Positions 17,928-35,273 of a stretch of 38,435 bases of DNA are shown one piece after another. The stretch's first letter is position 1. Each line of letters starts with the position of its first letter. The DNA lies in assembly GCA_017962225.1 (NCBI GenBank), contig JAGCVT010000009.1, positions 1 to 38,435 of the forward strand, given 5' to 3'. Below the pieces are notes generated by a model. The model had not been told where the DNA came from and searched no databases. It worked only from the letters and a program-made list of their open reading frames with translations. Position numbers and translations under genes: made by a program. This DNA comes from Lachnospiraceae bacterium (lineage in GTDB: Bacteria; Bacillota; Clostridia; Lachnospirales; Lachnospiraceae).

Positions 17928-17957
17928 TTGACATATACTTGATATTAATGCTAAATT
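17928..17957 (+). promoter_or_regulatory. Promoter of Rhs locus 1
   Basis: TTGACA (17928-17933) is followed after 18 bases by TAAATT (17952-17957) with TGC as an extended -10. The same arrangement occurs in locus 2 at 35274-35303. Transcription would begin near 17963, right at the riboswitch. Confidence 0.75.
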
Positions 17958-17959
17958 GG

Positions 17960-18043
17960 ACAAGTAAGGGGCAAACTTTCCGAAAGGTCAGGACGCAAAG
18001 TCGTAAGCCGTAAAAGAAGTATTTCTAGGTAGTTAGACTGCAA
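17960..18043 (+). ncRNA. Cyclic-di-GMP class I (GEMM-I) riboswitch aptamer, locus 1
   Basis: The conserved GEMM-I landmarks occur in order and with normal spacing: GGGGCAAAC (17968-17976), a GAAA tetraloop closed by CC/GG (17980-17987), GGACGCAAAG (17991-18000), a GCC...GTAAAA segment and CTAGGTAG (18025-18032). This follows the Vibrio Vc2 aptamer closely by eye. A closing stem between AGTAA and TTAGACT is possible. An intrinsic terminator follows without a gap, so control is by transcription attenuation. Whether c-di-GMP turns the unit on or off cannot be settled by reading. ATTTCT of the aptamer's second hairpin could pair with AGAAAT of the terminator's left arm, which would favour 'off when bound', but the closing stem also abuts that arm. 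Confidence 0.93.
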
Positions 18044-18085
18044 TCAGATAAGAAATTTTTATATTTCTTGTTTGGTTGCTTTTTT
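18040..18085 (+). terminator. Riboswitch expression platform, locus 1
   Basis: GCAATCAGATAAGAAAT (18040-18056) pairs with ATTTCTTGTTTGGTTGC (18063-18079), with wobbles and a mismatch, and is followed by six Ts. It lies before the start codon at 18106, so readthrough is needed to express the genes. Confidence 0.9.
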
Positions 18086-18105
18086 ATGTCTGTTTTGGAG
18101 TGATT

Positions 18106-18966
18106 ATGAAAAGAAATTTCAAGAAAACATGTACTTATTCATTAGCATTTGCGCTTATGCTATCAACATTCACCCTGAATGTTAAAGCGGAAAAATATGA
18201 GTATGATTCATTCGATCGAGTTACAAAAGTAATTTATGATGATGGAAGCTACGTAACATACAGTTACGATAATAACGGAAATATATTAAATACCACCGTT
18301 CATGAAGCATCCGGAAACCAGGGCGGAAATGAAAACCAGGGCGGCAACGGAGGCCAGGGCGGAAACGAAAACCAAGGCGGAGGAAACGGAGGCCAGGGTG
18401 GAAACGAAAACCAAGGCGGAGGAAACGGAGGCCAGGGTGGAAACGAAAACCAAGGCGGAGGAAACGGAGGCCAGGGCGGAAATGAAAATCAAGGCGGTGG
18501 AAACGGAGGCCAGGGAGGAAAAGAAAACCAGGGCGGAAGCGGAAGCCAGGGCGGAAATGAAAACCATGGTACCACGGGAGATAATTCCGGATCAAATGAA
18601 GGCGGAAACGAAAATCAGGGAGGAAACGGAAGCCAGGGCGGAAACGGAACATCTATAGAAGGTACTGTAAATACAGGAGATGATTCCGAAAACGGTTCCG
18701 GAAGCGGTTCAGGTTCAGGAAGCGGAACAGGCTCAGGAAGCGAATCGGGTTCGGGAAGCGGAACTGAAAATGATAATTCAGGAGATACAGGATCAGGAAC
18801 CGAATCGGGAACAGAGGATTCGGGAACGACTGATTCAGGAGATGATACTTCTGATGATGACAGCAGTTCAGGAGATAACTTCTTTGTAAAAGCCGTAAAA
18901 GCAGTATGGGGCTTTGTAAAGAATGCGTTTAAGGCAATAGGCGACTTTTTTAAGAATTTGTTTTAA
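18106..18966 (+). CDS. Small secreted protein: YD hairpin, Gly/Asn/Gln repeats, acidic stretch, amphipathic C-terminal helix (locus 1)
   Basis: A 286-residue protein of no family I know. Residues 1-28 are a Sec signal peptide ending VKA. Residues 30-67 are a single YD/Rhs-type hairpin (KYEYDSFDRV, TYSYDNNGNIL). Residues about 69-185 are Gly/Asn/Gln-rich, including a 13-residue repeat (39 bp). Residues about 190-256 are Gly/Ser then Asp/Ser/Thr-rich and strongly acidic. Residues 258-286 form a predicted cationic amphipathic helix, with lysines spaced 3-4 apart (VKAVKAVWGFVKNAFK). The frame extends upstream to 18076, inside the terminator, but GGAG at 18097 fits ATG 18106. The giant Rhs gene starts 12 bases after it. 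The helix might act on membranes or bind the giant partner; no function is shown. Confidence 0.85.
   Translation: MKRNFKKTCTYSLAFALMLSTFTLNVKAEKYEYDSFDRVTKVIYDDGSYVTYSYDNNGNILNTTVHEASGNQGGNENQGGNGGQGGNENQGGGNGGQGGNENQGGGNGGQGGNENQGGGNGGQGGNENQGGGNGGQGGKENQGGSGSQGGNENHGTTGDNSGSNEGGNENQGGNGSQGGNGTSIEGTVNTGDDSENGSGSGSGSGSGTGSGSESGSGSGTENDNSGDTGSGTESGTEDSGTTDSGDDTSDDDSSSGDNFFVKAVKAVWGFVKNAFKAIGDFFKNLF
18311..18560 (+). repeat. 39-bp tandem repeat in the small secreted gene (locus 1)
   Basis: About five to six copies, some degenerate, of a unit starting GGAGGCCAGGGTGGAAACGA and encoding GGQGGNENQGGGN. The middle copies are almost identical, so copy number probably varies by slippage. Because the unit is a multiple of three, gain or loss keeps the frame. 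Confidence 0.9.
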
Positions 18967-18978
18967 GGGGAAAGATAG

Positions 18979-21900
18979 ATGAAAAGAAAATTACGTGAAG
19001 CTTTAAGAAGAATACTTTCAATCATATTAATGATAGTGATGCTTCCTTTGAGCAGTATGCAGCCTGCTTTTACAGCGATTGTACACGCTGAAGGAACAGA
19101 TGATTATGTGGCTGAGTCTGTTATCGAGGAAAGTGATACAGATGAAGATACTTTATATTCGGTAACTCCTGAAAATCCTTCTGAGGATGTTGTTTCCAAT
19201 GAAGAGGATACTGTAGAAGACAATGAAGACGTAGCAGACGATCAGGATGTTATTGTTGGCGAAAATACATCGGATGAAGAGGATGCTGATGTAATTGAAA
19301 AAGTTAATGAGGAAGATATTGTAACTCAGGGAGAAATTTCAAATGATGTCATTAATCCTGATGTTGATGTAATAATAGAACTCGGACTTCGGGCAGAATT
19401 AAATGAATGTGCAGATTCAGTTCTTACCTGGAATAAAGCCGAGTTAGAAAATGCAGAATATTTTGTATACAGAAATGATGAATTAATTGATTCTTTTTCT
19501 TTAGATGAAGAAGGTGAAGAAAACGCAAATGTGAGCGAAGAAGAAGGATTAATTTCTTACGTTGATTCTAACACAACAGCTGATACAGAATTTTCATACA
19601 AAGTTGTATTGAAAGTCGGCGAAACTATCTATAGCGAATCTGATACCGAATCGGTAAAAACCCCGGAAGCTTTAGTAATTCCAGATAGTGGTTACTATTC
19701 ATTGGATTCAGACTTAACTGTTTTTAGCGTAACAATGAATAGAAAATCATATTTGGATTTAAATGGGAAAGAACTTAAAGTCTGTAAAGATTTAAACGAT
19801 GAAGGATATGATTCAGAACTTCATTTTGATAATGGCTCAATAATTTGTAATGGTAATTTTAATGTGACTAACAGTTATGCGGAAATATATATGAATAATC
19901 CGCATGATTATTTATATGTTAAAGGGAATGTAAAATTACAGAACCAAAGATATTATGCAAATTATACAAATGGTGTATTTGAAGTTGCTGGAAACTTTAC
20001 TGCGAGTTATTTTAATACATCCAATTATTGTAAATTTATATTAAGTGGATCAGAACGTCAGGATATATCCATCAATGATACTGGTGCTTATATAGAATAT
20101 TTGGAAAATAATAATACATCAGAAGATGGAATCAACTTCGTTAATGCCAGACAGATTAATATGTTTGAAACCAATGACGATGCTAAGGTGTCTATTTATG
20201 GAGAAGAAGTTGAAAACGGTTTCACTTTATTCGAAGACAGCACTATTGACGGAGATTTTAGCATAGGATTTGGAGTACTGGATCTTAACGGATATACACT
20301 TACAATAAACGGAAATTTTGTTCAAAAGGGCGGAGATGTTGTAATCGGAAACGGCAAACTTATTGTAAGAGGAGATTACAGTATTGAAAATGAAACATTA
20401 GATTATAGAAATCAATCAGTTAAAGCATTAAGTAGTGGTAGATTGATAATGAATGATGAAGCTGGAAGTGTACTTATATATGGCAAGTTCACTTCTCATT
20501 CCGTAGTTGAAAGAGATGGATTGCTTACAGCCGGATTGTTTGAAATAAAGGGAGATTTTAATCAAGTAGAGAACTACGGTAACTTCAAGGCTTCAGGTAG
20601 TCATACTGTTTTGCTGTCGGGTGATAAAAAGCAGACAGTTAAATTCGCGAGCCCTTCTACTGCAAAATCACATTTCAATAACTTTGAGATAAGCAATACC
20701 AGTGAAGAAGGTGTAGAATTTGGTGCAGATTCCACCGGACCTATGGCAATAGGAATGGTTAAGGATAATGGAATTAAGGTTGTCGGTTCACTTGTGATTA
20801 ATGGGGATACTTCATTCGAAGACAACCATTATTGTTCGGATATTTTTATTAATGATCAAACAACTTTAAATAATGAGATTGAAATTGAAGGAAATTTTAA
20901 ATCAGGATATTATTTGTATTTAAAAGGGAAGCTAACGGTTGACGGAGATTTTGCTGTTAATAAATATGATACTTACGTATATTCAGATACATATGTTAAA
21001 GGCAATTTGATTGTGGGCGGAGGAAACTCCTATGCTTATATGTATATATATGGCGGAACCTTTACAGTAGAAGGAGACGCACAAATAAAAAAATATTCAT
21101 ATGGATATTCATATTTATATCAAAACAATAGTAATTCTGCGGAATCTTCTTTTATAGTTAAAGGAAATTTGTCTCTTGACACGTCCTGCGTTTTCCAAGG
21201 AAACTTCGGAACTTTTACTATAGGCGGTGATATAAAAGGAGCAGGCGCGGTTCAGTTAAGCGGTTTGCACAGTACTGTATTTAATGGTACAAAATCTCAA
21301 AGAGTTGAAATAAATAAGAATTCTTATTTTGCAAAAATAGAAATTAATAACTCCAGCCAGGAAGGAGTTTCGTTCCAAGACTTCTATGGTATAGGAGAAC
21401 TTGTCAGAAACGGAAATAATTTTTCTTATGATGGAATGAACGGATATCTGGGATGGACGTTAAACGAAGATACAGAAATAGACGGAGATGTTCGACTTTT
21501 AGGAGACACCCTTGATTTAAATGGGTATACATTGAAAATTAAAGGAAATTTGATTCAATCTGCAGGTGTTGTAAATGTAAATGGTGGCAAACTCGAGATT
21601 GAAGGTGATTATCGCATTCAAAAAGATGATATTGTAAACGAAAATATACAATATTCTGCATCAATTGGTAAATTGGTAATGACCAATGAACAAGATTATG
21701 TTTTAGTAGGTGGAAGCTTTTATAATCAGTCATCAGAAAATTCTGATGGACTGCTTACTGCCGGTTTGCTTGAAATAAAAGGAGATTTTTATCAAATTTC
21801 AAATTCAACAAGTTATACTTTTACAGCGACCGAAAAACATACTGTTAAATTTTCAGGTGATAAAAAACAAACGGTTAAGTTTTCAAATTATTCAAATTGG

Positions 21901-24900
21901 TATTCATATTTTAACAATCTGGAAATTGAGAATGCAAGCGAAGAAGGCGTTGTATTCGATTCAACAAATTCTGTTCCCGGAGCCAAGGGAAATGTAAAAG
22001 ATAATGGCAATAAAATTAATGGTCAGCTTTTAATATGCGATAGCACAACGTTTGAAAATAACCATTATTGTTCAAATATTTTAGTATCAGATTCGTACTT
22101 TACGTTATCAAGTGATATTGAAACGGATGGAGATTTTAAATTCTCTAGTTACAATATAACTTTAAATAACAAGTTAACTGTAGGCGGAACTCTGTCTATT
22201 CAAGCTCGTAATATTTATGTTAATTCAGATATAAATGTTAAAGGGGATTTATTAATTGGAGGAGAGTATGGGAATTATTGCTACACATATTTATATGAAG
22301 GTAGTTTGGTAGTTGAAGGCAATCTGCAGATATCCAGATACAGTTCGAGTCGAACAACTATATTATATCAATCATATAATAAAATTACTCCTATAACAGT
22401 TGGTGGAAATTTGACCATAGATTTAGGATGTGCTTATTATGGGTATAACGGGACACTTACTCTTGGCGGAAATCTGACGGGTTCCGGAAACGTATATGGA
22501 TATGATTCACATATAATTAAACTAAATGGAGCAGAAGCTCAAAGAATAGACACTTCGAACACCTCTTATTTTGGAACAATCGAAGTTGAGAATACCTGTG
22601 AAGATGGCGTAACATGTGCATATTTATATAAAATCAAAAATTTAGTAAGAAATGGTAATATTTTTAGGTATGATGGAATAACTGGAACATACGGTTGGAC
22701 ATTAAAAGAAGATACAGTTTGGAATGAAGACTTAATTCTTCTTGCAGATACTCTTGATTTAAATGGATACACTTTAGAAATAAAAGGAGATTTAATTCAG
22801 AATTCAGGCATTGTATATATAAACGGTGGAAATCTTATTGTTGACGGAAATTATCACATTCAGAAAGCAGAAACAGTAGAGGGTTCAACTCAGTATTCGG
22901 TTGGTAACGGTGTTCTTAAAATGACCAACGATAATGATTATGTTTTGGTTAAAGGCGATTTTGCGATACAGACAGCACTGGATTCTGCGGAAAACCTTAA
23001 TGCGGGAACACTTGAAGTAAAAGGAAATTTCAATCAAATTCCCGGTTCAACTAGGAACTTTGCTGCAACAGGTTCGCATACAACAGTTTTTTCCGGAGAT
23101 GGAAAACAAACTGTAAAGTTTGAAAACACGGGTAGCGGATCATATTTCAAAAACATTGAAATAAAAAATGAAAGTGCAGAAGGAGTGGTATTGGATACGA
23201 CTTCTTCCTATCCTTTGGCCAATGGACTTGTTAAAGACAATGGAAATAAGGTAACAGGTGCACTTGCAATAAGTGACAATACTTCATTTGAGAATCAACA
23301 CTATTGTTCGGATATTGCTATTGCTGATGGATATACGATACTCAAAGAGATTGAAACAGACGGAGACTTTATTATAGATACTGACAATTATCCTTCGCTA
23401 AATGGTAAGTTGACTGTTGGAGGAAACCTGTATTTTCTAGGTAGTGGTTTATATGTTTGTTCAGATATCCTTGTTAAAGGAAATATGTATTTACACGGTA
23501 GTAGTTCTAACTATGATTATGGATATGTATATTTATACAAAGGATCTTTGACGGTTGATGGAAATTTTGAAGCGAAAGTAAGAAACGAAAATGGATATGT
23601 TCGTATTTACCAGGAAGCTTACTATAATGTTGAAGATATGCCTTTTGTTGTAAAAGGAGATTTATACTTAGGAAAGGATTGCTATTTCTCGGGCTACCGC
23701 GGAACATTTACTTTAAGTGGAAATGTTGAGGGTGAAGGATATTTCCAGTTTAGCAATAATCATAAAACGGTATTTAATGGAAAAGATTTGCAGAAAATTG
23801 AATTATCTCCCAATTCATACTTTGCAAACTTGGAAATCTGTAATTACAGCAAGGCCGGAGTTGAATTTAGCAGAATGATAAAATATGACTCATTCATTAG
23901 AAATGGATGCAGAGTATCATTTGGCGAAAATTCGTATGAAATGGGTTGGAAACTTACAGAAAACGAAGTATATGATTCAAATTTGTTTTTGTGGGAAGAT
24001 ACCCTTGATTTAAATGGATATACGCTTACTGTCAATGGCGATTTTTATGCTATGGGTGGTAACGTAATTCTTAATGGCGGAAAATTAATTGTTAACGGAG
24101 ATTTAAGAGTACAGACAATTGATTCTGAAGGTGATGACGGCACGGTTTATGGATATGGATCGGCTCGCTTCACTATGAATAATCCTGCGGACTATATTTT
24201 GGTTAATGGAGGATTCTACTATAACCCCAAGAGTTCTTATTCCACAAATTCTGATATTTTTTCAGATGGAACAATTGAAATTAAGGGAGATTTTTCTATA
24301 AACGGAAACAGTCGTTTTGTATCTTCAGAAAACAATACTGTAAAATTTACCGGTAATGTAAAACAAACTTTTAATTCCAATTATGATACTGTTATTGCTA
24401 ACTTTATTAACCAAAACCCGGAAGAATTAAATGTTAATACTTATGTCTATGTTAACGGAAGTTTAGTTGATGATACTGAAAGTATTTCAGGATCTGCTAC
24501 GTTTTATGTACCAAATCCTTCTATTATTAAAAATGGTATTTTCAGTGGAAATTTATATATACAAAATGGGTGTATTCTTCAGGAAGATTTATCTGTTGGC
24601 GGAAGATTATCTATTAATAGTGATATGCATGCTAATGGGAAAAATATTAATGCAAACGAGATTATTCTTGACAGTGCCTTATATGTTGAAGAATCTCAAA
24701 TAAGAGTAGCAGATAATATCGCTGTATCATATAGTGGCAAGCTTGTTATGATAAATGCTGCTGATTATGTCCTTGCTAATGGAAACTTTAATTTCTATTC
24801 AAATTATAATCATACAGATTTTCTTACTGCCGGAACTCTTGAAGTCAGAGGGGATTTTACACAGAGTAGTTACAAGAATTTTATAGCTTCAGGAACACAT

Positions 24901-27900
24901 ACAACTATTCTTTCTCCCAAAATGAGTACCGCAGGACGAGAATATGTTCAGATTATAAAATTCAATGCGTATGCAGGAACAACGAGATTTAACAAAGTTG
25001 TATTGAAGAAGAGCGATAGCGGATACCAGTTTAGTCCGGCTCTTTCTGAGATTTCCAATGAAGTAGTATATGACATTGAGGATGCTGAAGCACCTACTGC
25101 TGTTGAATTTATAGTGGCAGGAGAAATAACTGAAAAGAAGGTTACCATCAGTTTTGGCGGCGCAGAAGACAATAATGGTATTGTCGGATATGAAATTTAC
25201 AGAGATGGAAAGCGTGTTGGTGCTACCAGCAATACTACATATGTTGACAATACTGTAGATTCCGGCAAAGAGTATACTTACACGGTATTTGCTTTTGATG
25301 ATGAAAGAAATAAAGCTTTATCTTCACCTGCACTTATAGTTAAGACGCTTGACGATGAGGAATTACCGAGTATACCTCAGAACCTTGGTATTAAAACAAG
25401 AACAGGATCTTCTTTGACACTGGAATGGTCTCCTTCATCTGATAATGTCAAAGTAGTAGGATACAATATTTACGCAGATGGTGTTCTTGTGGCTGAAAAA
25501 GTATTTGATACATACTATAAAGCCAAGAATCTTGACAAAACACATGTTTATAAATATTCCGTGGAAGCAGAAGATAAGTCAGGAAATCTATCCGGAAGAT
25601 GTGATGAAATTGAGGCAGAAGTTAAGATGCCAAAGATTCTTTCTGTAACTCCTGAAGATAACAGCCGAATAGGTAATGATAGTGTTACTTTAAATGTTTA
25701 TTATGAAAACGTAGGAAACAGCACAGGCAATAAAGTTGCAATTAAGATTAAAAATGATTCGGGTGAATGGAGTTCACTTGCTACTAAACTCACACAGAAA
25801 TCCGCTTCATATGGAAGACTTTATTCAACATATACATGGGATATCAGCGAATATAAAGGGGAAGAAAGCGTTACATTAAAGTATATTCTTACTGATGCTG
25901 ATGAAAACGAAGATAGCAAAGAAGTTAATTATGTAATTGACAGAGAAGGACCAGAAGCTCCGACTAACTTTAAAGTTGAAGCCAATAACGGTAATGTTAA
26001 TATTTCATTTAGTCCTTCTGCAAGTGCAGATTGTGATAGATATGAAATTTACAGAGCAAATTATGGTGGCGAAGAACTTATAGCAAAACTTTCCGGAAGA
26101 GAGAATACTTTCTTTATTGATAAAGAAGTTACAGTTGGCGGAACTTATGAATACTATGTTCTCGCCTTTGATAAATTTAACAATAAGAGCGGTGTAAGTA
26201 ACAGAGTATCAGTTACGATAGAAGAAGATCATGTTGCACCTGAAGTTATGAATATCACTCCTCGTGCAGGCAGAGTTAATAGTGAATTGAAACTTGACGT
26301 AACCGCATCGGACAATAAGAGTGTTTCCAAAATCGGAATTCAGTATAAAACTGAAGAAGGAACTGAATGGATTGATGTTGAAGAAAAAGAAGCATCAAAC
26401 GGTATAGCAACATTCAAATTTGATACAACTGCTCTTTCAGACGGAGCATACTTCTTTAATGCTTATGCAATTGATGGTTCCGGTAACAGAAGTGCTGAAT
26501 TATATACAAGAAGATATACGGTAGACAATACAGGTGTTGAAAAAATAGTTATTACTGAAGTTATACCCGGAGCATCATATGTTCGAATTGAATGGGAAGA
26601 TGTGACGGATGACAATTTCAGTTATTTTGCTGTGGAACAGCTTAAAGAAGGCGAATTTGTTCGTATTGCCGAAGAACGCGAAACATTAGGCTTATATGTA
26701 AAAGATTTGGATCCTGAAACTGAATATACTTTCAGAGTAGTAGGATATGATAACCTTGGAAACAGAGGTATTGAATCTGATGAAATTGTTGTAACTACTT
26801 TAGTAGATACTTTAGGCCCTCAGATAACTGCCGCATATCCTCAGTCATCAAATTATAATAGCATTCTTAAACTTGAAATGGATGCAAATGACGATAATGA
26901 ACTGGATTACGCTGTGTTCAGTTATTCTTTGGATGGAAATGAATATACTGAAATCGATAAAGTTAAAGCCAAATCAGGAAGCAAGGAAGAACATTTTGTT
27001 AAGAATTTCAGTCTTTCCGAGATTAGAGAAGGTAAGATCTTCGTTAAATTCGAGGCATATGATAAAGCAGGAAATAAGAATCTTCTTACTCAGGATGATG
27101 AAGATATTATAGTAGAGTACAACGTAGACAGAACTGCTCCTTCAAAAGTTAGCAACTTAAGATTTAATTCAAACGAAGGATGTGTTGAACTTGTATGGGA
27201 TGAACTTCCTGAAGAAGAAACTGATGTCAAAGGATTTAGAGTTTGGAGAGCAGATGCAAATAACGGCATTTATTCAGTATTAGAAGATGAAACTCAATCA
27301 ATTAATCTCTTCGATTATTCCGTAAAAGTTGGTTCGATGTATATCTACAAGGTTGCTGCAATTGATATTGCCGGTAATGTTGGTGAAACATCTAACGAAG
27401 TAGTAGTAACTGTAATAAAGGATAATGAAAAGCCTCAGATATTGGGCATTTCTCCTCACACAAGCTCGAAAATATGTGCTAATCAGACATTTTCAGTTTC
27501 TTCTCTGGATAATGCTGCAATAGCAAATGTCAGACTGGAATATACGCAGTATGGTGATTTGAATTACTGGAGAGAAATAGGGAGAGCAACTGAGAGTGAG
27601 AATTACTGTATTTCTAAAATTACATGGGATACAGAGAAAATTGATGAAGGTGAGTATTATGTTCGTGCAATAGCAACCGACGTTTACGGAAACGAAAGTG
27701 AAGCTTGCATGTTTACTTATGTCCTTGACAAAACTGCCCCGGTTGTTACCGACATTGATACTGAGACAGGTCATTTTGAAATTACAGTTAATGTCACACT
27801 TGAAGATAAAGATGATTTCTCAAAGATGGAAATTCTTCGCCGTGAGCCCGGAGGAGAATATATTACTGTTGGAAAATCGGAGAGCTTATCTTTCACTGAT

Positions 27901-30900
27901 GTAGGTGTTTTAGCTAATACTAATTATTTCTATAAAGCAAAAGTTTATGATGAAGCAGGCAACATTACTTTCTCAGGTGAAGTTCAGGGATATGCTGATG
28001 ATGTTGACGTTGTTGCTCCCGTAGCTGTACTTCCCGAAAATATTGTCGGCTTGGTTGATATGGAAGTAGGCCTTGACGGTCTTGCTTCGTATGACAATGT
28101 CAGAATCACTGAATATAAGTGGGATATGGGCAACGGAGATACCGTTGAAGGTTCAACTGCTACATACACTTACCATGAACCCGGTGAATACACCATTAAA
28201 TTAACGGTTAAGGATAAGGCCGGTAATTCATCATCCGCAACTACAACGGCATTTATCTATGGACCGGAAACAGATGAAGAAGGAAACATAATAACAAGAG
28301 GAAAAGCGCATATTCAGATTGTCGATGAAAAAGGAAAAGGCATTCCTTATGCGTTAGTTTACTTACAAAACAGTGAAACTTCAGGTTTGCCTTTAATGGC
28401 TGACGGAAACGGATATGTTGATATAGTTCAGCGTATAGGCATAGCAAGAGTAGCTGCATACAAGACCAATTACCTACCTGCTCAGAAAGATATTCTTATT
28501 ACCGCAGGTGAGGTTAAAAAAGACAAAATAGTATTGAGAGAGGATGAACTGATTGTAGGTAGTCTCTCTGTTCACAGAATGTCTTTGGCAGAAATGGTAT
28601 ATACAGGCGTATCGTTTGATTCAGCTGGAAATAATCATACTTACAGATTTGAATACACACTTGTATACAAACAAAAAGCATATACTGAAGTTATTATTGT
28701 CTGTGATGGAAAAGGAAAATTGGAATGCGGACCTTGGGAGGCTCCGGATCATGTTCCTTGCGATTTTGAAGTAACAGTAATAGAGGAACAGCCAATCTTA
28801 ATCTATATAACCAGACAGGAAGAGATTCAATGGCTCAAGAATATGTATCAGGTTGATTTGACAGTGGTCAATGCGGCTGATTTCCAGTTCTATATTGATG
28901 GAGCTCAGGCAACCCTTTCATTCCCTAACGGGGTATCCTTGGCTGATTATTCCGGACCACAAACACAGGCCTCATACTCAAATATGGCTTCACTTTCAGA
29001 TGATGCATCTGATTCAGCTGCTCCTACAGGAGCCATGACAACATCTGTTTCATATCCGATATATGCGCATGCTCATACTGCGGCTATAGGTCGAATCTAC
29101 GGACAGGAACAGAAGAAGGTTTCATGGATTTTGAGAGGTGATAAGAGCGGAGACTATGGAATATCCGCTAATTTCAAAGGCATACTTATGCCTTTTGAGG
29201 CTCCCGTTACTGCACATTTTGAAACAGGAGTAAAAGTTACAACAGGAGAAGGACTTCATATTACAGTAATGCCTGAAAGTACTGTTGATGCAGGCGGTGA
29301 AAACTATATCCAGTATGCGGTAACCAACAGATCGGGTTATCCTATATATAACGTAAAAACCTCAATTCCTGGATTCCAGGCACCGCCTCAGATTGTTTCG
29401 GTATATGACAAAGGTTCAGATACGTTAAATGAAGAAATTATCTACCCTGATGGCACAATGGAAAATAAAGAAGGGAATGGATGTAATCTGACAACTAAAA
29501 CCGGAAACGGTCAAAATATAAGCGGTTCTGTTACTATTGATGTATTAATGCCTGGGGAGACATATTATGGAACATACATATGTCCGATGCCTGATGCAGT
29601 TGATCCCCAGGAAGGAAACTTTTATTATTGGGAATATGTTAAGGGATTCGTAAGAGCTATAGAGGGAGCGGATTTAGGCGTAACTGTATCCATTAATCCT
29701 ATCGGAGGACATTATCATAGAACATTCTATGGCGCACCTGATCCTATAGTTGCTTTCTTTGGTGATCCTGTAGATGTTACCACCGGATATTACAAAGACG
29801 AAGTTGAAGCTTTAAATATTACGGGTGGTCAGATAGTAGGATATGATATATCTTACTCATCGGGCTCAATAGAAAAATCCGGTGAAAATGGCTATGGATG
29901 GGAAAATCCGTTTGAAATCTCTTTAGAGGATCGTGATGGAAAAATTGCGCTTCACACCAGCCCGAATGGAGAGGCATTATTCATTAAGAGCGATAAAACA
30001 CTATATGGTACATTTATTGATGGTGATTTTGTTTTGGATGATACCGAAGATTATTCTATAGGTGAATATGAAGGTGTGTCATCAGGATTTAAAGATTTCA
30101 GAATAGTAAAGAATCTGGATTCAACTTATATATTATATTATCCCGGTGGAGCTATAAGACGCTTCAATTCCGAAGGTAAGTTGACTCAGATGGAAACTCC
30201 TGAAAAACAGACGATTTCTCTTTCTTATGATGGAAGTAATACTATCATAAAAGAAGATATTTCAGGAAAAACTATTACTGTTGTTCATAATGAAAACGGA
30301 CTTGCTACAGAATTACATGATAATGCAGGAAGAGTTACATATTTTGTTTATGATGATAACTCAAATCTTATAGCTATTGTTCGTCCTGACGGAACACAAT
30401 TTACCTATACATATGATGAGCAGCACAGAATTATTGCGGCTTCGAATAATAATGGTGTATTTGTTACCAACAGTTATGATGACAATAACAGAGTAGTTTA
30501 TCAGGAAGATGCATTAGGCAATCCTTTGACACTTTCATATGAAGAACATTCAAATGGCGGTATGAAGGTAACCTCAATTGATGCCAAAGGAAATGCGCGT
30601 TCTGTTGAAGTAGGCAATTCAGGACTTATTTTCTCGGAAACTACGGCTAAGGGTGCTACCACTACATACAGATATGACAAAAACGGCAATCTGTTGGAAG
30701 AAATTGATCCATTTAATCATGTAGTATATAAAGCTTATGATGAAGATGGTAACATTATAAAAGTTACCGACAAGGGTTATTCAGAGACTGTATTCTCCTA
30801 TGATTCCAACGGAAATGTTGTAGGAATTAAAGGTAACGATGAGGTTGGTACTTCAGCATCATATACGTATGACGGAAACAATCATATGACCTCGTATACG

Positions 30901-33900
30901 GATCCGATGGGAATGACCACAACCTTTGCATATGATTCCAATGGTTTACAGATTTCCGAAACCAGAGAAAATCTGGGCAGCACCCAATATGGATATACTA
31001 ACGGACTTTTAACATCCATTACTAATCCGTTGGGCAAAACGTCATATATTGAATATGATGCATACGGAAATCCTATTAAGACAATTGATGCTAACGGAAA
31101 TGCTACGACATACACGTTTGATTTAGTAGGAAATAAACTTAGCGAAACTGATGCATTAGGAAATACAACATATTATACATATGATTGCAACGGAAACTGT
31201 ACATCGGTTAAAGATGCGTTAGGTAATGTTACAAAATACGATTATGATGCTATGAGCCATCTTGTTAAAGAAACATATGCGGATGGCAGCGTTATAACAT
31301 ATGTTTACGATTCTGTAGGAAATTGTATTAGTAAAACAATGCTGGGCGGAGTTGTTGAGACATATGAATATGATGAAACTAATCATGTTGTAAAAGCTTC
31401 TTCAACAGATGGCAGTAGTGCAACATTTACTTATGATTCTCTTGGTCGAAAAACGAGCGAGAAAGATAATTTAGGTAGAACCAATAGTTTTGAATACTAT
31501 CCTAATGGCAGCGTTTATAAGACTACATTTGGGGATGGTTCCAGTGTTCTTAATACTTATAACAAGAGATGGAAATGTACAACCAAGACATATTCTGATG
31601 GATCAAGTGAATACACTACTTATGATAAGAATGGCAATGTAACAAGTATTACAGATTCTTTAGGAAATACTGTTAAGTATGAATATGATTTATACGGCAG
31701 ATTAATTAAAGAAATCGATGCAATGGGATATGTAACCCAATATGAGTATGATGCTAACGACAACTGTATAACCAAGACAGATGCCGAAGGTCGAACAGCA
31801 CATATGGTATATGATGCTGTAGGTCAATTAATTGAAATTTATGTTATTGATTCTAAGGGAGAAAAGTATTCAGTTAAGTATGAATATGATGCACTTGGAA
31901 GAGTAATAGCAACAACTGATGAATCAGGATATACAACCAAGATTAAGTATGATGCAGTAGGAAATGTTAAGAGTACTATTGATGCAAACGGAAATGAAAC
32001 GGATATCACAACATATGATTCAGTAGGAAGAGCCATAAGTGTTAAGGAAGCAGACGGTACTGTAACCAACTACTCATATGATGCAAGAGGAAATATACTT
32101 ACTGCTATTAAGAACCTTTCAGGAGTTAGTAAGTCTACCAAGTATACATATGACAGTAAGGGCAGAGTAGTATCGGTTAAAGAAAACGATGCTCTTACAA
32201 CAAAGGTTTCTTATGATTCATATGGTAATGTTACATCTGTAACAGATGCTAATGGCGGAGTAACTCAATATCAGTACGACAGTCTTGCAAGACTTACAGC
32301 AGTTATTTCATCCTTAGGCAATAAACAGACGTATACTTACAATTCACAGAGCTTAGTATCTGAATTCGAAAATGCAAGAGGCCAGAAGACATCATATACA
32401 TATGATTATCTTGGAAGAGTAACATCAATGACGGATGAACTCGGAAAAGTTCAGTATACATATGATGCAAACGGAAATCTTACAAAGGTAGAAGATTCCA
32501 AGGGAATCATTAAACGTACATTTGATAAGTTAAACAGAGTTACATCATATACGGATTACAATGGCGATACCATTAAGTATGCTTATGATGAACTCGGCAA
32601 TCTTATGGCCATCACCTATCCCGGTGGTGAAGTTGTAAGATATGAATACTATAAGAACGGCTGGCTTAAGAAGGTCGTTGATAATAACGGTAAGGCTACA
32701 ACCTATACCTACAATGCTCTCGGACAGGTAGCAACATGTACAAGACCGAATAATACAAAAGAGATTCGTACTTATAACAGTAAGACCGGTCAGTTACTCA
32801 TCCAGAGAGAAATTAAGACCGATAGCAACGGGGCGTTCTTAGAAGAAATATCTAATTATGTTTACAATTACAATGCTTCAGGAAATATCACATCCGTAGA
32901 AGGCTTTGATAATAATTCTGAAGGATTAACATCTGCTTCGTTTAAGTATGATTCTGAGAACAGACTTATCGAATATAACGGTAAGACAGTTCGCTATGAT
33001 GCTGACGGAAATATGGTATATGGTCCTGTAAACGGAGTAATGACAGATCTGTCATACGACTGCAGGAACAGACTTATTTACGCAGGCGGAGTAAGATATG
33101 AATACAATGCAGAGAATACAAGAATAGCTGAAGAAACAAATGATTACAGAGCAGTATTTGTAACTGATGTAGTCAGCAGTGAATTAAGCAGAGTTCTTGT
33201 AAAGAAAACATACAAGAAGACAAATGGTGTTGTATCGAATAACAGCACCGACAGACTGTATGTATATGGCTACGGATTAATTTACGAAACAGAAGGCGCA
33301 AGTACTTTATATCATCACTATAACAACATCGGAAGTACGATGAAGCTTAGTGATGGTTTAGGTAATATAATTGCCGAATACTCATACGGACCTTATGGTG
33401 AATTATTAGAGGGTAATACAAAACTTTCTGATTACCTTTACAATGGCCAGTATGGTGTAAGCACAGATGAAAATGGCTTATACTATATGCGCCAGCGTTA
33501 TTATAATTCCGAGATAAAGAGATTTATCAATCAGGATATATTAACAGGTAATGTAGGTGACTCGCAGAGCATGAACAGATATGCTTATGTAGAGGGCAAT
33601 CCTATAAACCTGATTGATCCGTTTGGTTTATCTCCTTTGAAAATATTATCGTTTGTTGCGCATACTGTTCTGGGTGTAGTTGGATGTATTCCCGGCATCC
33701 CCGGAATAATAGCAAACGTAATCGATGCCGCAATATATTTGGTAGAAGGAGACTATTTGAATGCGGCGTTGTCCGGACTATGTGCCCTGTCAATGGGTGT
33801 GGCGACGTTTGCCACAAAAACAACTTGCTTGGGAATGAAAGTTTCCAAGACTGCAATGGTGGTCTACCAGGCAACTAATTTGACGCGAGATGCTATCGAT

Positions 33901-34869
33901 CTAGTCAATAATATGTCGAATCTCGCAGATCAGGTTAATAATATTGCAACGAAACTAGCTACCGGAGAAAAGATTACAGCAGGCGACTTGTTTAATTTAG
34001 GCGCGGCTACGTTTGGAACGGTAATGTCTGCAACATCGGTGTATGGTAGTGCCGGTAACTTTGTTGATTCGATTTCAGATTTAGCTAATGTTAAAGGATG
34101 CTTCGTTGAAGAAACAGAAGTTGAAACAATATCCGGTAAAAAGAATATTGAAGACATTGAAGAAGGAGATTATGTTTTAGCAGAAGATCCTGAAACAGGA
34201 GAACAGGATTACAAGCGTGTATTAAGTACATATGTATATGAAAAGATAGTTTTAGTACATGTTTTCGTTGGCGATGAAGAAATCATAACAACGGAAGAAC
34301 ATCCTTTCTATGTTGAAGGAGAAGGCTTCGTTCAAGCAAATGAACTCAAAGAGGGATACATTTTAAGAACTTCAGATGATGAAGAAGTATATGTAGACCG
34401 AATTGAAATAGAATACCTTACAGAATCCATAAAAGTTTACAACTTAAGGGTTGAGGGCTTCCATACATATTTTGTATCTGAAATATTAATTTTAGTACAT
34501 AATAGTTGTAGTAGTAATGCTAAAAAATTACGAGAAAATATGGGTGATGCTGATAAAAAGCATGGAGGTATGGATGAGCCTAATTATGATAATGCAGCGC
34601 ATCATATAGTAGCATCAGGCTCGAAAAATGATTGGAATGTAAAGTCGCAAAAAATTCTTGATACATATGGTATCAATATTAATGATGCTTATAATGGCGT
34701 ATTTCTTCCGACTGAAAAAGGCGTAAGTAAAGCGGCATATCATCCAAGCTTGCATACAGATGCTTATTATAAGAAAGTTTATGATACTTTAAAAACTGCT
34801 TCTTCAGCGACCGATGTACAGAAAAGACTACAAAGCATTAGGAAAAAATTACTAAATGGTACATTTTGA
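18979..34869 (+). CDS. Giant secreted Rhs/YD-repeat polymorphic toxin with beta-solenoid, Fn3, Hint and AHH nuclease domains
   Basis: 5296 residues, roughly 580 kDa, in one unbroken frame. Order: signal peptide 1-38 (ends VHA); acidic linker to about 125; Fn3-like module about 130-230; beta-solenoid-like repeats about 235-2030 (four units of 411-417 residues marked LDLNGYTL); six Fn3-like modules alternating with Ig-like ones, about 2035-3005; PKD about 3010-3094; carboxypeptidase-regulatory-like about 3107-3195; a surface-protein domain with SWILRGDKSGDYGIS, to about 3590; Rhs entry PVDVTTGYYKDEV; YD repeats about 3750-4830; Rhs core YYMRQRYYN to IDPFGLSP (D4880); hydrophobic pre-toxin region 4888-5040; Hint 5041-5175 (C5041, TTEEHPF with H5108, VHN); AHH nuclease 5176-5296 (A5207-H5208-H5209, HPSLHT). 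AAGGGGAAAG precedes the ATG. The architecture is like WapA-type Gram-positive Rhs toxins, but far larger. Confidence 0.93.
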   Translation: MKRKLREALRRILSIILMIVMLPLSSMQPAFTAIVHAEGTDDYVAESVIEESDTDEDTLYSVTPENPSEDVVSNEEDTVEDNEDVADDQDVIVGENTSDEEDADVIEKVNEEDIVTQGEISNDVINPDVDVIIELGLRAELNECADSVLTWNKAELENAEYFVYRNDELIDSFSLDEEGEENANVSEEEGLISYVDSNTTADTEFSYKVVLKVGETIYSESDTESVKTPEALVIPDSGYYSLDSDLTVFSVTMNRKSYLDLNGKELKVCKDLNDEGYDSELHFDNGSIICNGNFNVTNSYAEIYMNNPHDYLYVKGNVKLQNQRYYANYTNGVFEVAGNFTASYFNTSNYCKFILSGSERQDISINDTGAYIEYLENNNTSEDGINFVNARQINMFETNDDAKVSIYGEEVENGFTLFEDSTIDGDFSIGFGVLDLNGYTLTINGNFVQKGGDVVIGNGKLIVRGDYSIENETLDYRNQSVKALSSGRLIMNDEAGSVLIYGKFTSHSVVERDGLLTAGLFEIKGDFNQVENYGNFKASGSHTVLLSGDKKQTVKFASPSTAKSHFNNFEISNTSEEGVEFGADSTGPMAIGMVKDNGIKVVGSLVINGDTSFEDNHYCSDIFINDQTTLNNEIEIEGNFKSGYYLYLKGKLTVDGDFAVNKYDTYVYSDTYVKGNLIVGGGNSYAYMYIYGGTFTVEGDAQIKKYSYGYSYLYQNNSNSAESSFIVKGNLSLDTSCVFQGNFGTFTIGGDIKGAGAVQLSGLHSTVFNGTKSQRVEINKNSYFAKIEINNSSQEGVSFQDFYGIGELVRNGNNFSYDGMNGYLGWTLNEDTEIDGDVRLLGDTLDLNGYTLKIKGNLIQSAGVVNVNGGKLEIEGDYRIQKDDIVNENIQYSASIGKLVMTNEQDYVLVGGSFYNQSSENSDGLLTAGLLEIKGDFYQISNSTSYTFTATEKHTVKFSGDKKQTVKFSNYSNWYSYFNNLEIENASEEGVVFDSTNSVPGAKGNVKDNGNKINGQLLICDSTTFENNHYCSNILVSDSYFTLSSDIETDGDFKFSSYNITLNNKLTVGGTLSIQARNIYVNSDINVKGDLLIGGEYGNYCYTYLYEGSLVVEGNLQISRYSSSRTTILYQSYNKITPITVGGNLTIDLGCAYYGYNGTLTLGGNLTGSGNVYGYDSHIIKLNGAEAQRIDTSNTSYFGTIEVENTCEDGVTCAYLYKIKNLVRNGNIFRYDGITGTYGWTLKEDTVWNEDLILLADTLDLNGYTLEIKGDLIQNSGIVYINGGNLIVDGNYHIQKAETVEGSTQYSVGNGVLKMTNDNDYVLVKGDFAIQTALDSAENLNAGTLEVKGNFNQIPGSTRNFAATGSHTTVFSGDGKQTVKFENTGSGSYFKNIEIKNESAEGVVLDTTSSYPLANGLVKDNGNKVTGALAISDNTSFENQHYCSDIAIADGYTILKEIETDGDFIIDTDNYPSLNGKLTVGGNLYFLGSGLYVCSDILVKGNMYLHGSSSNYDYGYVYLYKGSLTVDGNFEAKVRNENGYVRIYQEAYYNVEDMPFVVKGDLYLGKDCYFSGYRGTFTLSGNVEGEGYFQFSNNHKTVFNGKDLQKIELSPNSYFANLEICNYSKAGVEFSRMIKYDSFIRNGCRVSFGENSYEMGWKLTENEVYDSNLFLWEDTLDLNGYTLTVNGDFYAMGGNVILNGGKLIVNGDLRVQTIDSEGDDGTVYGYGSARFTMNNPADYILVNGGFYYNPKSSYSTNSDIFSDGTIEIKGDFSINGNSRFVSSENNTVKFTGNVKQTFNSNYDTVIANFINQNPEELNVNTYVYVNGSLVDDTESISGSATFYVPNPSIIKNGIFSGNLYIQNGCILQEDLSVGGRLSINSDMHANGKNINANEIILDSALYVEESQIRVADNIAVSYSGKLVMINAADYVLANGNFNFYSNYNHTDFLTAGTLEVRGDFTQSSYKNFIASGTHTTILSPKMSTAGREYVQIIKFNAYAGTTRFNKVVLKKSDSGYQFSPALSEISNEVVYDIEDAEAPTAVEFIVAGEITEKKVTISFGGAEDNNGIVGYEIYRDGKRVGATSNTTYVDNTVDSGKEYTYTVFAFDDERNKALSSPALIVKTLDDEELPSIPQNLGIKTRTGSSLTLEWSPSSDNVKVVGYNIYADGVLVAEKVFDTYYKAKNLDKTHVYKYSVEAEDKSGNLSGRCDEIEAEVKMPKILSVTPEDNSRIGNDSVTLNVYYENVGNSTGNKVAIKIKNDSGEWSSLATKLTQKSASYGRLYSTYTWDISEYKGEESVTLKYILTDADENEDSKEVNYVIDREGPEAPTNFKVEANNGNVNISFSPSASADCDRYEIYRANYGGEELIAKLSGRENTFFIDKEVTVGGTYEYYVLAFDKFNNKSGVSNRVSVTIEEDHVAPEVMNITPRAGRVNSELKLDVTASDNKSVSKIGIQYKTEEGTEWIDVEEKEASNGIATFKFDTTALSDGAYFFNAYAIDGSGNRSAELYTRRYTVDNTGVEKIVITEVIPGASYVRIEWEDVTDDNFSYFAVEQLKEGEFVRIAEERETLGLYVKDLDPETEYTFRVVGYDNLGNRGIESDEIVVTTLVDTLGPQITAAYPQSSNYNSILKLEMDANDDNELDYAVFSYSLDGNEYTEIDKVKAKSGSKEEHFVKNFSLSEIREGKIFVKFEAYDKAGNKNLLTQDDEDIIVEYNVDRTAPSKVSNLRFNSNEGCVELVWDELPEEETDVKGFRVWRADANNGIYSVLEDETQSINLFDYSVKVGSMYIYKVAAIDIAGNVGETSNEVVVTVIKDNEKPQILGISPHTSSKICANQTFSVSSLDNAAIANVRLEYTQYGDLNYWREIGRATESENYCISKITWDTEKIDEGEYYVRAIATDVYGNESEACMFTYVLDKTAPVVTDIDTETGHFEITVNVTLEDKDDFSKMEILRREPGGEYITVGKSESLSFTDVGVLANTNYFYKAKVYDEAGNITFSGEVQGYADDVDVVAPVAVLPENIVGLVDMEVGLDGLASYDNVRITEYKWDMGNGDTVEGSTATYTYHEPGEYTIKLTVKDKAGNSSSATTTAFIYGPETDEEGNIITRGKAHIQIVDEKGKGIPYALVYLQNSETSGLPLMADGNGYVDIVQRIGIARVAAYKTNYLPAQKDILITAGEVKKDKIVLREDELIVGSLSVHRMSLAEMVYTGVSFDSAGNNHTYRFEYTLVYKQKAYTEVIIVCDGKGKLECGPWEAPDHVPCDFEVTVIEEQPILIYITRQEEIQWLKNMYQVDLTVVNAADFQFYIDGAQATLSFPNGVSLADYSGPQTQASYSNMASLSDDASDSAAPTGAMTTSVSYPIYAHAHTAAIGRIYGQEQKKVSWILRGDKSGDYGISANFKGILMPFEAPVTAHFETGVKVTTGEGLHITVMPESTVDAGGENYIQYAVTNRSGYPIYNVKTSIPGFQAPPQIVSVYDKGSDTLNEEIIYPDGTMENKEGNGCNLTTKTGNGQNISGSVTIDVLMPGETYYGTYICPMPDAVDPQEGNFYYWEYVKGFVRAIEGADLGVTVSINPIGGHYHRTFYGAPDPIVAFFGDPVDVTTGYYKDEVEALNITGGQIVGYDISYSSGSIEKSGENGYGWENPFEISLEDRDGKIALHTSPNGEALFIKSDKTLYGTFIDGDFVLDDTEDYSIGEYEGVSSGFKDFRIVKNLDSTYILYYPGGAIRRFNSEGKLTQMETPEKQTISLSYDGSNTIIKEDISGKTITVVHNENGLATELHDNAGRVTYFVYDDNSNLIAIVRPDGTQFTYTYDEQHRIIAASNNNGVFVTNSYDDNNRVVYQEDALGNPLTLSYEEHSNGGMKVTSIDAKGNARSVEVGNSGLIFSETTAKGATTTYRYDKNGNLLEEIDPFNHVVYKAYDEDGNIIKVTDKGYSETVFSYDSNGNVVGIKGNDEVGTSASYTYDGNNHMTSYTDPMGMTTTFAYDSNGLQISETRENLGSTQYGYTNGLLTSITNPLGKTSYIEYDAYGNPIKTIDANGNATTYTFDLVGNKLSETDALGNTTYYTYDCNGNCTSVKDALGNVTKYDYDAMSHLVKETYADGSVITYVYDSVGNCISKTMLGGVVETYEYDETNHVVKASSTDGSSATFTYDSLGRKTSEKDNLGRTNSFEYYPNGSVYKTTFGDGSSVLNTYNKRWKCTTKTYSDGSSEYTTYDKNGNVTSITDSLGNTVKYEYDLYGRLIKEIDAMGYVTQYEYDANDNCITKTDAEGRTAHMVYDAVGQLIEIYVIDSKGEKYSVKYEYDALGRVIATTDESGYTTKIKYDAVGNVKSTIDANGNETDITTYDSVGRAISVKEADGTVTNYSYDARGNILTAIKNLSGVSKSTKYTYDSKGRVVSVKENDALTTKVSYDSYGNVTSVTDANGGVTQYQYDSLARLTAVISSLGNKQTYTYNSQSLVSEFENARGQKTSYTYDYLGRVTSMTDELGKVQYTYDANGNLTKVEDSKGIIKRTFDKLNRVTSYTDYNGDTIKYAYDELGNLMAITYPGGEVVRYEYYKNGWLKKVVDNNGKATTYTYNALGQVATCTRPNNTKEIRTYNSKTGQLLIQREIKTDSNGAFLEEISNYVYNYNASGNITSVEGFDNNSEGLTSASFKYDSENRLIEYNGKTVRYDADGNMVYGPVNGVMTDLSYDCRNRLIYAGGVRYEYNAENTRIAEETNDYRAVFVTDVVSSELSRVLVKKTYKKTNGVVSNNSTDRLYVYGYGLIYETEGASTLYHHYNNIGSTMKLSDGLGNIIAEYSYGPYGELLEGNTKLSDYLYNGQYGVSTDENGLYYMRQRYYNSEIKRFINQDILTGNVGDSQSMNRYAYVEGNPINLIDPFGLSPLKILSFVAHTVLGVVGCIPGIPGIIANVIDAAIYLVEGDYLNAALSGLCALSMGVATFATKTTCLGMKVSKTAMVVYQATNLTRDAIDLVNNMSNLADQVNNIATKLATGEKITAGDLFNLGAATFGTVMSATSVYGSAGNFVDSISDLANVKGCFVEETEVETISGKKNIEDIEEGDYVLAEDPETGEQDYKRVLSTYVYEKIVLVHVFVGDEEIITTEEHPFYVEGEGFVQANELKEGYILRTSDDEEVYVDRIEIEYLTESIKVYNLRVEGFHTYFVSEILILVHNSCSSNAKKLRENMGDADKKHGGMDEPNYDNAAHHIVASGSKNDWNVKSQKILDTYGININDAYNGVFLPTEKGVSKAAYHPSLHTDAYYKKVYDTLKTASSATDVQKRLQSIRKKLLNGTF
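20210..25070 (+). repeat. Four long internal repeats (about 1.24 kb each) coding the beta-solenoid
   Basis: The LDLNGYT(L) motif recurs at nucleotides 20278, 21511, 22753 and 24004, giving periods of 1233, 1242 and 1251 bases. Other landmarks recur in register, such as NHYCSD/N (near 20828, 22066 and 23300) and GDKKQTVKF or GDGKQTVKF. The last unit is the most diverged. Within each unit, short GN/GD-turn repeats suggest stacked beta-strand coils. Confidence 0.9.
34099..34503 (+). other. Hint (pre-toxin) domain within the giant protein
   Basis: Residues 5041-5175. It starts with Cys (GCFVEETEVET), has the VLAEDPETGE turn and the TxxH block TTEEHPFYV, and ends FHTYFVSEILILVHN followed by Ser. 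These are the features of Hint domains that cut between module and toxin. It is not a full intein: there is no homing endonuclease and it lies at a toxin junction. Confidence 0.9.
34504..34869 (+). other. AHH-type nuclease toxin tip of the giant protein
   Basis: The last 121 residues carry NAAHHIVASG, KILDTYGININDAYNGVFLP and HPSLHTDAYYKKVYDTL. These fit the AHH family of HNH/EndoVII-fold predicted nucleases found at the tips of polymorphic toxins. The two histidines and the HP..HT block supply the expected catalytic and metal-site residues. The target (DNA or RNA) is not visible. Confidence 0.85.
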
Positions 34870-34958
34870 GTTTAAGATGATAAATATAGAATAATAATTT
34901 AGAGGTAAATATTTTAAATGTATTTGTTTTTGTGAAAAGTCATCTTACTTCATTTGGA

Positions 34959-34993
34959 AACAGAAAACCGGCATAAGCCGGTTTTCTGTTTTT
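34959..34993 (+). terminator. Intrinsic terminator after the giant toxin gene
   Basis: AACAGAAAACCGGC (34959-34972) and GCCGGTTTTCTGTT (34977-34990) form a perfect 14-base stem around ATAA, ending in Ts. It ends the locus 1 transcript about 90 bases after the toxin stop. Confidence 0.95.
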
Positions 34994-35062
34994 AAGTTAA
35001 AAATTTCTTCGACAATAAGTTAGAATAGTCTTCTTTAAACATTATAAGGTTGAAGACTAATA

Positions 35063-35204
35063 ATGATAGATTATGAAAGTGATGGTTGGTGATAAAATAT
35101 AATGAAGTGTGTGAGTTTGACATATCGAAATATAACGAAAAAGAATAGTTAAAACCATAATACTTATTGAAAAAATAGAAAGTTATGATGAAAATTATTA
35201 TTAA
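35063..35204 (+). pseudogene. Possible frameshifted remnant of a small gene (immunity-gene position)
   Basis: An ATG at 35063, preceded by AAGG about 16 bases upstream, reads MIDYESDGW and stops. An overlapping second frame continues VIKYNEVCEFDISKYNEKE to TAG at 35146-35148. A third frame runs RIVKTIILIEKIESYDENYY to TAA at 35202-35204. Joined, the pieces look like one acidic protein of about 48 residues with two single-base slips. The protein-like composition in an AT-rich gap is the only evidence; no family was recognised. Confidence 0.3.
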
Positions 35205-35273
35205 TTAAAGAAATAATATTCAGAACCCCTCAATTTGTTTATTTATTATTCATATAATAATATTTGTTTCCTG

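What the first reader, a model, noticed from the sequence alone, without database searches (positions are those of the whole stretch)
17928..34869. A c-di-GMP riboswitch gates a two-gene unit ending in a 5296-residue Rhs nuclease toxin
Seen: promoter, GEMM-I aptamer, terminator, small secreted gene and giant toxin gene follow each other without a break. Known: GEMM-I senses c-di-GMP and often controls motility or surface genes; Rhs toxins act in contact competition. Inferred: the cell ties deployment of a huge nuclease toxin to the sessile/motile second messenger. I do not recall a described Gram-positive Rhs system under direct c-di-GMP riboswitch control.
Basis: partly seen in the sequence, partly recalled or inferred. 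Interest (0 to 1): 0.92.

Follow-up and report, generated by a model that had tools for sequence, protein, structure and literature searches.

The report
Giant Rhs toxin behind c-di-GMP riboswitch
In an uncultured bacterium of the Lachnospiraceae, an RNA switch for the lifestyle signal c-di-GMP sits in front of a small secreted partner gene and a giant toxin-like surface protein, so the cell may make this weapon only when it settles down.

Summary
Rfam finds c-di-GMP-I aptamers at 17960-18045 and 35306-35399 (54.5 and 51.9 bits; cut-off 35). Each is followed by an uninterrupted terminator hairpin, a small gene with a signal-like N-terminus, and a giant gene: 5296 aa in copy 1, cut by the contig end in copy 2. 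Copy 1 carries RHS repeats, pretoxin-HINT and an AHH nuclease tip.

What I add. (1) The terminator's 5' arm is the aptamer's own tail and includes the c-di-GMP-contacting C (18041), so binding should oppose termination: an ON switch is predicted. 23 of 56 GEMM-I sites of the genus share this layout. (2) The small protein is an RHS companion (one YD repeat, linker, often an amphipathic C-terminal helix), found beside RHS giants in other Lachnospiraceae without a riboswitch. (3) Riboswitch plus pair was found only here and in one sister species; two relatives keep apparent scars. (4) Homology to a sister-species giant stops right after HINT; RHS-region dN/dS is about 0.17. (5) Copy 1 has no immunity gene beside it.

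Both components are known kinds; I found the combination and the companion in no paper searched. Ligand response, polarity and toxicity are untested.

The parts
17928..17957 (+). sigma-A-type promoter-like site (TTGACA, 18-nt spacer, TAAATT, TG before the second hexamer); the transcript would start at about the first base of the aptamer
   Evidence: consensus scan; same arrangement at copy 2
17960..18045 (+). c-di-GMP-I (GEMM-I) aptamer, copy 1; equivalents of Vc2 G20, A47, C92 at 17970, 17997, 18041
   Evidence: Rfam RF01051 54.5 bits; bases printed; my mapping, by spacing to the Bc1 numbers in passages of PMC11218506
18040..18085 (+). intrinsic terminator: 17-bp stem 18040-18079 whose first two pairs use GC 18040-18041 of the aptamer tail, then T6
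   Evidence: folding
18106..18966 (+). small companion gene, 286 aa: signal-like N-terminus, one YD repeat, G/N/Q-rich linker, cationic amphipathic C-terminal helix
   Evidence: signal peptide by eye
18979..34869 (+). giant RHS gene of polymorphic-toxin type, 5296 aa, signal-like N-terminus (by eye)
19876..24300 (+). N-terminal repeats of beta-strand-rich appearance (related units at 19876-20598, 21100-21816, 23527-24300), probable stalk
   Evidence: self-matches; alignment; fold not predicted
25372..28245 (+). fn3, Ig-like and PKD domains
   Evidence: Pfam
29761..33630 (+). DUF6531, RHS repeats (18 stretches) and Rhs_assc_core: the probable toxin cage
   Evidence: Pfam and NCBIfam; related by sequence to solved Rhs proteins such as 7q97 and 8h8a
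34120..34503 (+). pretoxin-HINT domain ending in VHN
   Evidence: PF07591 E 6.2e-26
34555..34848 (+). AHH nuclease tip with AAHHIVA, NGVFLP and H..LHT conserved in two relatives
   Evidence: PF14412 E 1.5e-14; alignment
34870..35305 (.). no ORF of 60 aa or more with ATG, GTG or TTG start on either strand: no adjacent immunity gene; a hairpin at 34960-34994 (by eye, not listed by the scan) may end the transcript
35274..35303 (+). promoter-like site of copy 2
35306..35399 (+). c-di-GMP-I aptamer, copy 2
   Evidence: 51.9 bits
35394..35441 (+). terminator of copy 2, 18-bp stem 35394-35435 and T6, same overlap with the aptamer tail
35464..36357 (+). small companion gene, copy 2, 297 aa (73% identical to copy 1)
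36370..38433 (+). start of giant gene, copy 2 (688 aa, cut by the contig end)

Best explanation
This is a two-gene unit for an exported RHS protein of polymorphic-toxin type, whose transcription passes through a class-I c-di-GMP riboswitch acting as an ON switch. Without ligand, the aptamer's 3' tail, including the C that would contact c-di-GMP, folds into a 17-bp terminator and the RNA ends after about 130 nt. With c-di-GMP bound, that C is held in the pocket, the base of the terminator cannot close, and polymerase reads through the small gene and the 16-kb giant gene. The giant protein is exported, exposes a long repeat and Ig-like stalk, and carries the AHH nuclease in an RHS cage; HINT cleavage frees the nuclease for delivery to a neighbour. 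The small companion probably docks to the RHS part through its YD repeat and to a membrane through its C-terminal helix. Shown: anatomy, overlap, family assignments, a different tip in a relative, purifying selection on the RHS region. Inferred: export, polarity, ligand response, HINT cleavage, toxicity, target, and the companion's role.
For: Two RF01051 hits well over cut-off. The three ligand-contact bases are present. The terminator starts exactly at 18040; keeping its two basal pairs open costs 4.0-5.5 kcal/mol by minimum energy (3.8-5.1 by ensemble) in three leaders, and the copy-1 hairpin folds at -13.5 without them instead of -20.7. The same overlap occurs at 23 of 56 genus sites, which are related and not independent, against 0, 3, 4, 1 and 1 of 56 for five displaced arms and 8 of 280 shuffled arms. 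19 GGDEF matches in the genome. RHS, PT-HINT and AHH domains. Homology to the giant end on G022:C22 stops right after HINT; dN/dS 0.153/0.906 in 900 codons of the RHS region. A giant in another genus, G305, ends in Tox-REase-3. An ON class-I riboswitch with transcription read-through before an adhesin gene is known (Bc2; PMC6366702, part 1 of 3 read).
Against: The seven functional class-I switches of C. difficile are all OFF, and the source warns against extrapolating polarity (PMC6366702). Predicted folds favour the terminator strongly (basal pairs at 0.96 or more), so ligand must act during transcription. No immunity gene beside copy 1 and no Imm11 found in the 85%-complete genome, though no control genome rang either. 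The combination is rare: G028, of the same genus, has the pair and no GEMM-I hit at all. G022:C22 is not shown to be the same gene as the one behind the riboswitch on G022:C20. No structural model could be made.
Confidence: 0.6

Rival explanations
1. OFF switch: c-di-GMP binding favours the terminator, so the toxin is made in the motile, low c-di-GMP state, as with flagella and toxins of C. difficile.
For: The seven functional class-I switches of C. difficile are OFF (PMC6366702).
Against: No antiterminator that would free the tail is seen in the folds of three leaders; the ligand-contact C itself is in the terminator stem, so binding should oppose termination.
Confidence: 0.17
2. The aptamer is a relic or locked element: it binds poorly and the terminator simply lowers expression.
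For: Bc1 of Bacillus thuringiensis did not respond to c-di-GMP in vivo although its aptamer is conserved (PMC11218506 passages); at the insertion site G007 has a terminator of this kind without an aptamer (by eye; one search lists no aptamer on that contig).
Against: The ligand-contact bases and the full model are kept in both copies and in G022.
Confidence: 0.13
3. The giant is mainly an adhesin, or a weapon against eukaryotic or unrelated cells, not a kin-competition toxin.
For: No immunity gene next to copy 1; the other giant end in this genome (C72) has no recognised tip and no adjacent small ORF; behind the 23 overlapping-terminator sites 15 first frames are 700 aa or longer and look like surface proteins.
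Against: AHH motif kept; the nearest AHH relative has Imm11 next to it; a different tip after HINT in G022:C22; single small ORFs left at the site in G012 and G007, though none matches an immunity family; immunity may lie in the missing part of the MAG.
Confidence: 0.25
4. The riboswitch and the toxin unit are neighbours by accident (hitch-hiking of a common leader).
For: The combination is rare: none of 60 fetched GEMM-I stretches of the family has an RHS-type frame.
Against: Promoter, aptamer, terminator and pair are duplicated together in the window, and aptamer plus pair recur in G022.
Confidence: 0.06

Closest known systems
c-di-GMP-I (GEMM-I) riboswitch with terminator platform, e.g. Bc2 before the cap adhesin gene of Bacillus thuringiensis
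   Same: aptamer family, terminator control, probable ON direction, large surface protein as target
   Different: target is an RHS unit with a nuclease tip; here the terminator arm is the aptamer tail itself (the Bc2 platform was not compared)
WapA (Gram-positive Rhs toxins of Bacillus subtilis and Streptococcus suis)
   Same: signal peptide, RHS shell, variable C-terminal toxin
   Different: no LysM or other wall-binding domain found by Pfam; the upstream partner is a small YD-repeat protein, not the SecF-like and SrtB genes of S. suis (PMC12704120 passages); long repeat and Ig-like stalk; riboswitch
TfoY of Vibrio (low c-di-GMP to type VI secretion)
   Same: c-di-GMP state tied to an antibacterial weapon (PMC6618264, search listing and start of abstract only; a riboswitch in front of tfoY is recalled)
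   Different: indirect, through a regulator, and at low c-di-GMP; here the toxin gene itself is behind the aptamer and high c-di-GMP is predicted
Type VI Rhs proteins with solved structures (7q97, 8h8a, Tse5 8cp6)
   Same: RHS region by sequence
   Different: Gram-negative, type VI delivery (recalled); here a signal-like N-terminus and Ig-like stalk

Membership tests
c-di-GMP-I riboswitch (RF01051) | covariance-model score over gathering cut-off | tested here: met
   54.5 and 51.9 bits, cut-off 35
c-di-GMP-I riboswitch (RF01051) | ligand-contact G20, A47, C92 | tested here: met
   17970 G, 17997 A, 18041 C; mapping by spacing
c-di-GMP-I riboswitch (RF01051) | binds c-di-GMP and changes expression | not testable with these tools
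   needs in-line probing and transcription assays
RHS protein of polymorphic-toxin type | YD repeats plus Rhs core domain | tested here: met
   PF05593 E 3.5e-135, TIGR03696 E 4.2e-18
RHS protein of polymorphic-toxin type | variable toxin tip after a conserved core | tested here: met
   identity to the G022:C22 giant end falls to 20-23% after HINT
Toxin-immunity pair | immunity gene directly downstream | tested here: not met
   copy 1 has none, so I file the gene as an RHS protein with a toxin tip and leave the toxin-immunity pair open; small ORFs of unproven function follow the giants of G028, G100 and G022:C22
AHH nuclease | domain score and AHH motif | tested here: met
   PF14412 E 1.5e-14; motif kept
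WapA | signal peptide and RHS shell | tested here: met
   the signal peptide is by eye
WapA | cell-wall-binding domain | tested here: not met
   none among the Pfam matches of two overlapping parts that cover the protein
WapA | SecF-like and SrtB genes upstream (S. suis type) | tested here: not met
   the five genes upstream of the unit are ABC-exporter parts

The most novel reading that the evidence does not exclude
A new kind of Gram-positive RHS weapon defined by a partner protein: a secreted tether that offers one YD repeat to the RHS cage and binds a membrane by its C-terminal helix. In one Lachnospiraceae lineage the whole unit stands behind a c-di-GMP ON riboswitch whose ligand-contact base is part of the terminator, so the second messenger of the sessile state directly licenses a 16-kb toxin transcript.
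Probability: 0.3. Interest if true: 0.78.

Novelty: new variant of a known kind. Interest (0 to 1): 0.62.

Why it matters
It would be a case of c-di-GMP gating an Rhs toxin gene directly through RNA, linking lifestyle choice to antagonism without a protein regulator. The companion family gives a handle on a poorly understood question: how Gram-positive Rhs proteins are held at or moved across the envelope without a type VI machine. The short overlap of ligand site and terminator makes polarity testable with one RNA and one base change.

Tried and rejected
PADLOC scan of the giant's C-terminal 2896 residues: nothing. PHROGs scan: no match for the small protein; weak matches for the HINT-AHH part. 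PDB sequence search with the AHH tip: nothing. Own model R1 on 83 sources: beyond the window, L073 and L094 only three hits at E 0.1-0.19, not accepted. Search for one RHS repeat that the companion copies: the best match lies at different places in the six giants compared, so no clear origin. Imm11 in the genome: none, but no control rang. Overlapping terminators: a folding classifier gave 30 of 56 sites and a loose pattern 24 of 54 (window sites not in it); I use the stricter 23 of 56. A 292-aa frame with four YD-like motifs lies 13.5 kb behind the G022:C11 aptamer; not adjacent, not counted. That G000:C72 (3497-aa 5'-open giant end) belongs to copy 2, and G022:C22 to the unit on G022:C20, is likely from the shared downstream gene but not shown; the pieces were not joined. 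In window against C72 the RHS region gives dN 0.47 and dS 1.98, saturated and not used.

Full report
Observation. Rfam gives two full-length c-di-GMP-I aptamers in the window, 17960-18045 (54.5 bits) and 35306-35399 (51.9 bits; cut-off 35). Each has a promoter-like site ending just before it and one terminator overlapping its end. Then follow a small gene (18106-18966; 35464-36357) and a giant gene (18979-34869, 5296 aa; 36370 to the contig end). The window is one whole contig of a 2.27-Mb genome, 85% complete. A third aptamer in this genome precedes a protein of about 1020 aa with a signal-like N-terminus.

Switch anatomy. The terminator stem 18040-18079 begins with GC in the aptamer tail, and 18041 is the equivalent of C92, which contacts c-di-GMP (G20, A47 and C92 from passages of PMC4744006 and PMC11218506). 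The copy-1 hairpin folds at -20.7 kcal/mol, -13.5 without those two pairs; keeping them open costs 4.0-5.5 kcal/mol by minimum energy in the three leaders folded. In the genus, 56 aptamers lie in 21 of 31 genomes. At 23 of the 56, the six bases from that GC pair fully with six bases directly before a T-run; five displaced arms give 0, 3, 4, 1 and 1 of 56, shuffled arms 8 of 280. The sites are related, and the arm is nearly invariant (21 GCAATC, 2 GCGATC), so there is almost no covariation to test. Of the longest frames starting within 420 nt behind these 23 sites, 15 are about 700 aa or longer and 22 have a hydrophobic N-terminal stretch (14-residue mean of 1.7 or more); for the other 33 sites the counts are 5 and 13 (frames, sorted by the classes; five of the 33 have no frame). 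Pilin-like genes lie behind some of the other sites (my reading, no family scan was made). I infer an ON switch. The genome has 19 GGDEF matches, one of them in an EAL-GGDEF protein at 3200-5302 of the window.

Giant protein. Signal-like N-terminus, beta-type repeats, fn3/Ig/PKD domains, DUF6531, RHS repeats, Rhs core, PT-HINT, AHH. The RHS region matches solved Rhs proteins and a teneurin-like protein by sequence (14 PDB sequences). Against the giant end on G022:C22, identity in steps of 50 residues is 34-96%, mostly over 54%, from 3750 to 4900, 36-54% from 4900 to 5050, 48-74% in HINT and 20-23% in the tip. dN is 0.153 and dS 0.906 over 900 codons. In eight other C-terminal ends scanned, one gives Tox-REase-3 (G305), one PT-HINT and no known tip (G022:C22), one a weak DUF7587 match (G195); C72, G359 and G136 give only weak RHS matches; G028 and G100 give nothing. 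The nearest AHH tip (G317, 52% in the alignment) has an Imm11 gene next to it; 6 of 368 family genomes, ours included, match the tip. Copy 1 has no ORF of 60 aa or more on either strand before the next unit.

Companion. The small protein has one YD repeat that Pfam recognises. Twelve N-terminal parts, three of them from the window and G022, align with the consensus AExYEYDSLxRVxKVIYEDGSYIEYEYDxNGNI. Of 11 loci of other genomes with a companion-like gene, it lies directly upstream of an RHS or giant frame in nine (L133, L134, L135, L136, L138, L139, L142, L145, L146) and apart from it in two (L137, L140). G136, G176 and G414, matched, were fetched but not resolved and are not counted. Named carriers include Anaerosporobacter faecicola, Anaerosacchariphilus polymeriproducens and a Peptostreptococcaceae MAG. 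The last 29 residues or a nearby stretch form a significantly amphipathic helix in six of seven proteins tested (three of the six are the near-identical window and G022 ones); the seventh, G100, ends in a membrane-type helix. I picked these seven; G084, G368, G359 and G142 end differently and were not tested.

Distribution of the combination. No Rfam family at all was found in 18 loci of related units and contig pieces, and no GEMM-I in 10 named loci, four of which are the same places as in the first set. Three of eight genomes checked have GEMM-I (8, 6 and 1 sites) but on contigs other than that of the pair. G028 has the pair and no GEMM-I hit. Of 60 GEMM-I stretches fetched from the family (0.3-17 kb, some with N; chosen from the top of a capped list and from G154 and G112), none holds a frame with three or more YD motifs or a companion signature. 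GEMM-I occurs in 135 of 397 family genomes, so this is a sample. In the genus only the window (twice) and G022:C20 were seen to join aptamer and pair; the 56 stretches have a median of 12.5 kb and 17 are 5 kb or shorter, so distant RHS parts could be missed.

Insertion site. On the left the unit follows an ABC-exporter operon in the window and in G022:C20; on the right, giant ends on other contigs (G000:C72, G022:C22) are followed by a gene that I know only by its start, MKMCPHCK. In relatives the two flanks lie close together. G014, G021, G020, G008, G017 and G025 have a short gap without a unit. G012 keeps the second half of a terminator of this kind, leader-like sequence and an 83-aa ORF; G007 keeps a whole terminator and a 190-aa ORF; G002 has a 172-aa ORF. 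I read G012 and G007 as scars of a lost unit. None of these ORFs matched an immunity family.

Literature. No Rhs system under a c-di-GMP riboswitch appeared in the listings. Read: PMC6366702 (part 1 of 3); passages of PMC11218506, PMC4744006, PMC11477304, PMC12704120, PMC9990079, PMC8432619 and PMC4448311. AHH is listed as a DNase tip of several Gram-negative effectors (PMC9990079). Subscription papers are not covered.

Verdict. Real and repeated, with an RHS region under purifying selection; both components known, the combination and the companion apparently undescribed. After rechecking, confidence in the main explanation was lowered from 0.62 to 0.60 because G022:C22 is not proven to belong to the riboswitch unit. 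Interest 0.62.

Noticed in passing
window 3200-5302: EAL protein with a weak GGDEF domain (700 aa), a probable c-di-GMP enzyme on the same contig as the riboswitches.
   Followed up: partly
window 9904-17833: Five genes of an ABC exporter with HlyD-like and FtsX parts directly upstream; its permease gene is kept in many genus genomes without the toxin unit.
   Followed up: partly
L232 2240-2800; L233 880-1620: Remnants of riboswitch-type terminators followed by single small ORFs at the insertion site in G012 and G007: apparent scars of a lost unit, possibly orphan immunity genes.
   Followed up: partly
L157, L160, L164: Small secreted-looking proteins with one YD repeat in Thiotrichaceae and Parabeggiatoa MAGs; no giant frame was seen next to them in the fetched DNA, which ends shortly behind the gene in L160 and L164.
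   Followed up: no
L049, L086, L091: Genus GEMM-I sites before short genes starting like MIENYITVKEAAEKW, probably small DNA-binding proteins (by eye); unusual riboswitch target.
   Followed up: no
L084, L089: The overlapping-terminator riboswitch also precedes a membrane protein of about 486 aa that looks like an O-acyltransferase (name by eye).
   Followed up: no
G290:C7, G112:C10, G370:C1, G291:C26: Tandem GEMM-I aptamers, up to three in a row, in other Lachnospiraceae.
   Followed up: no
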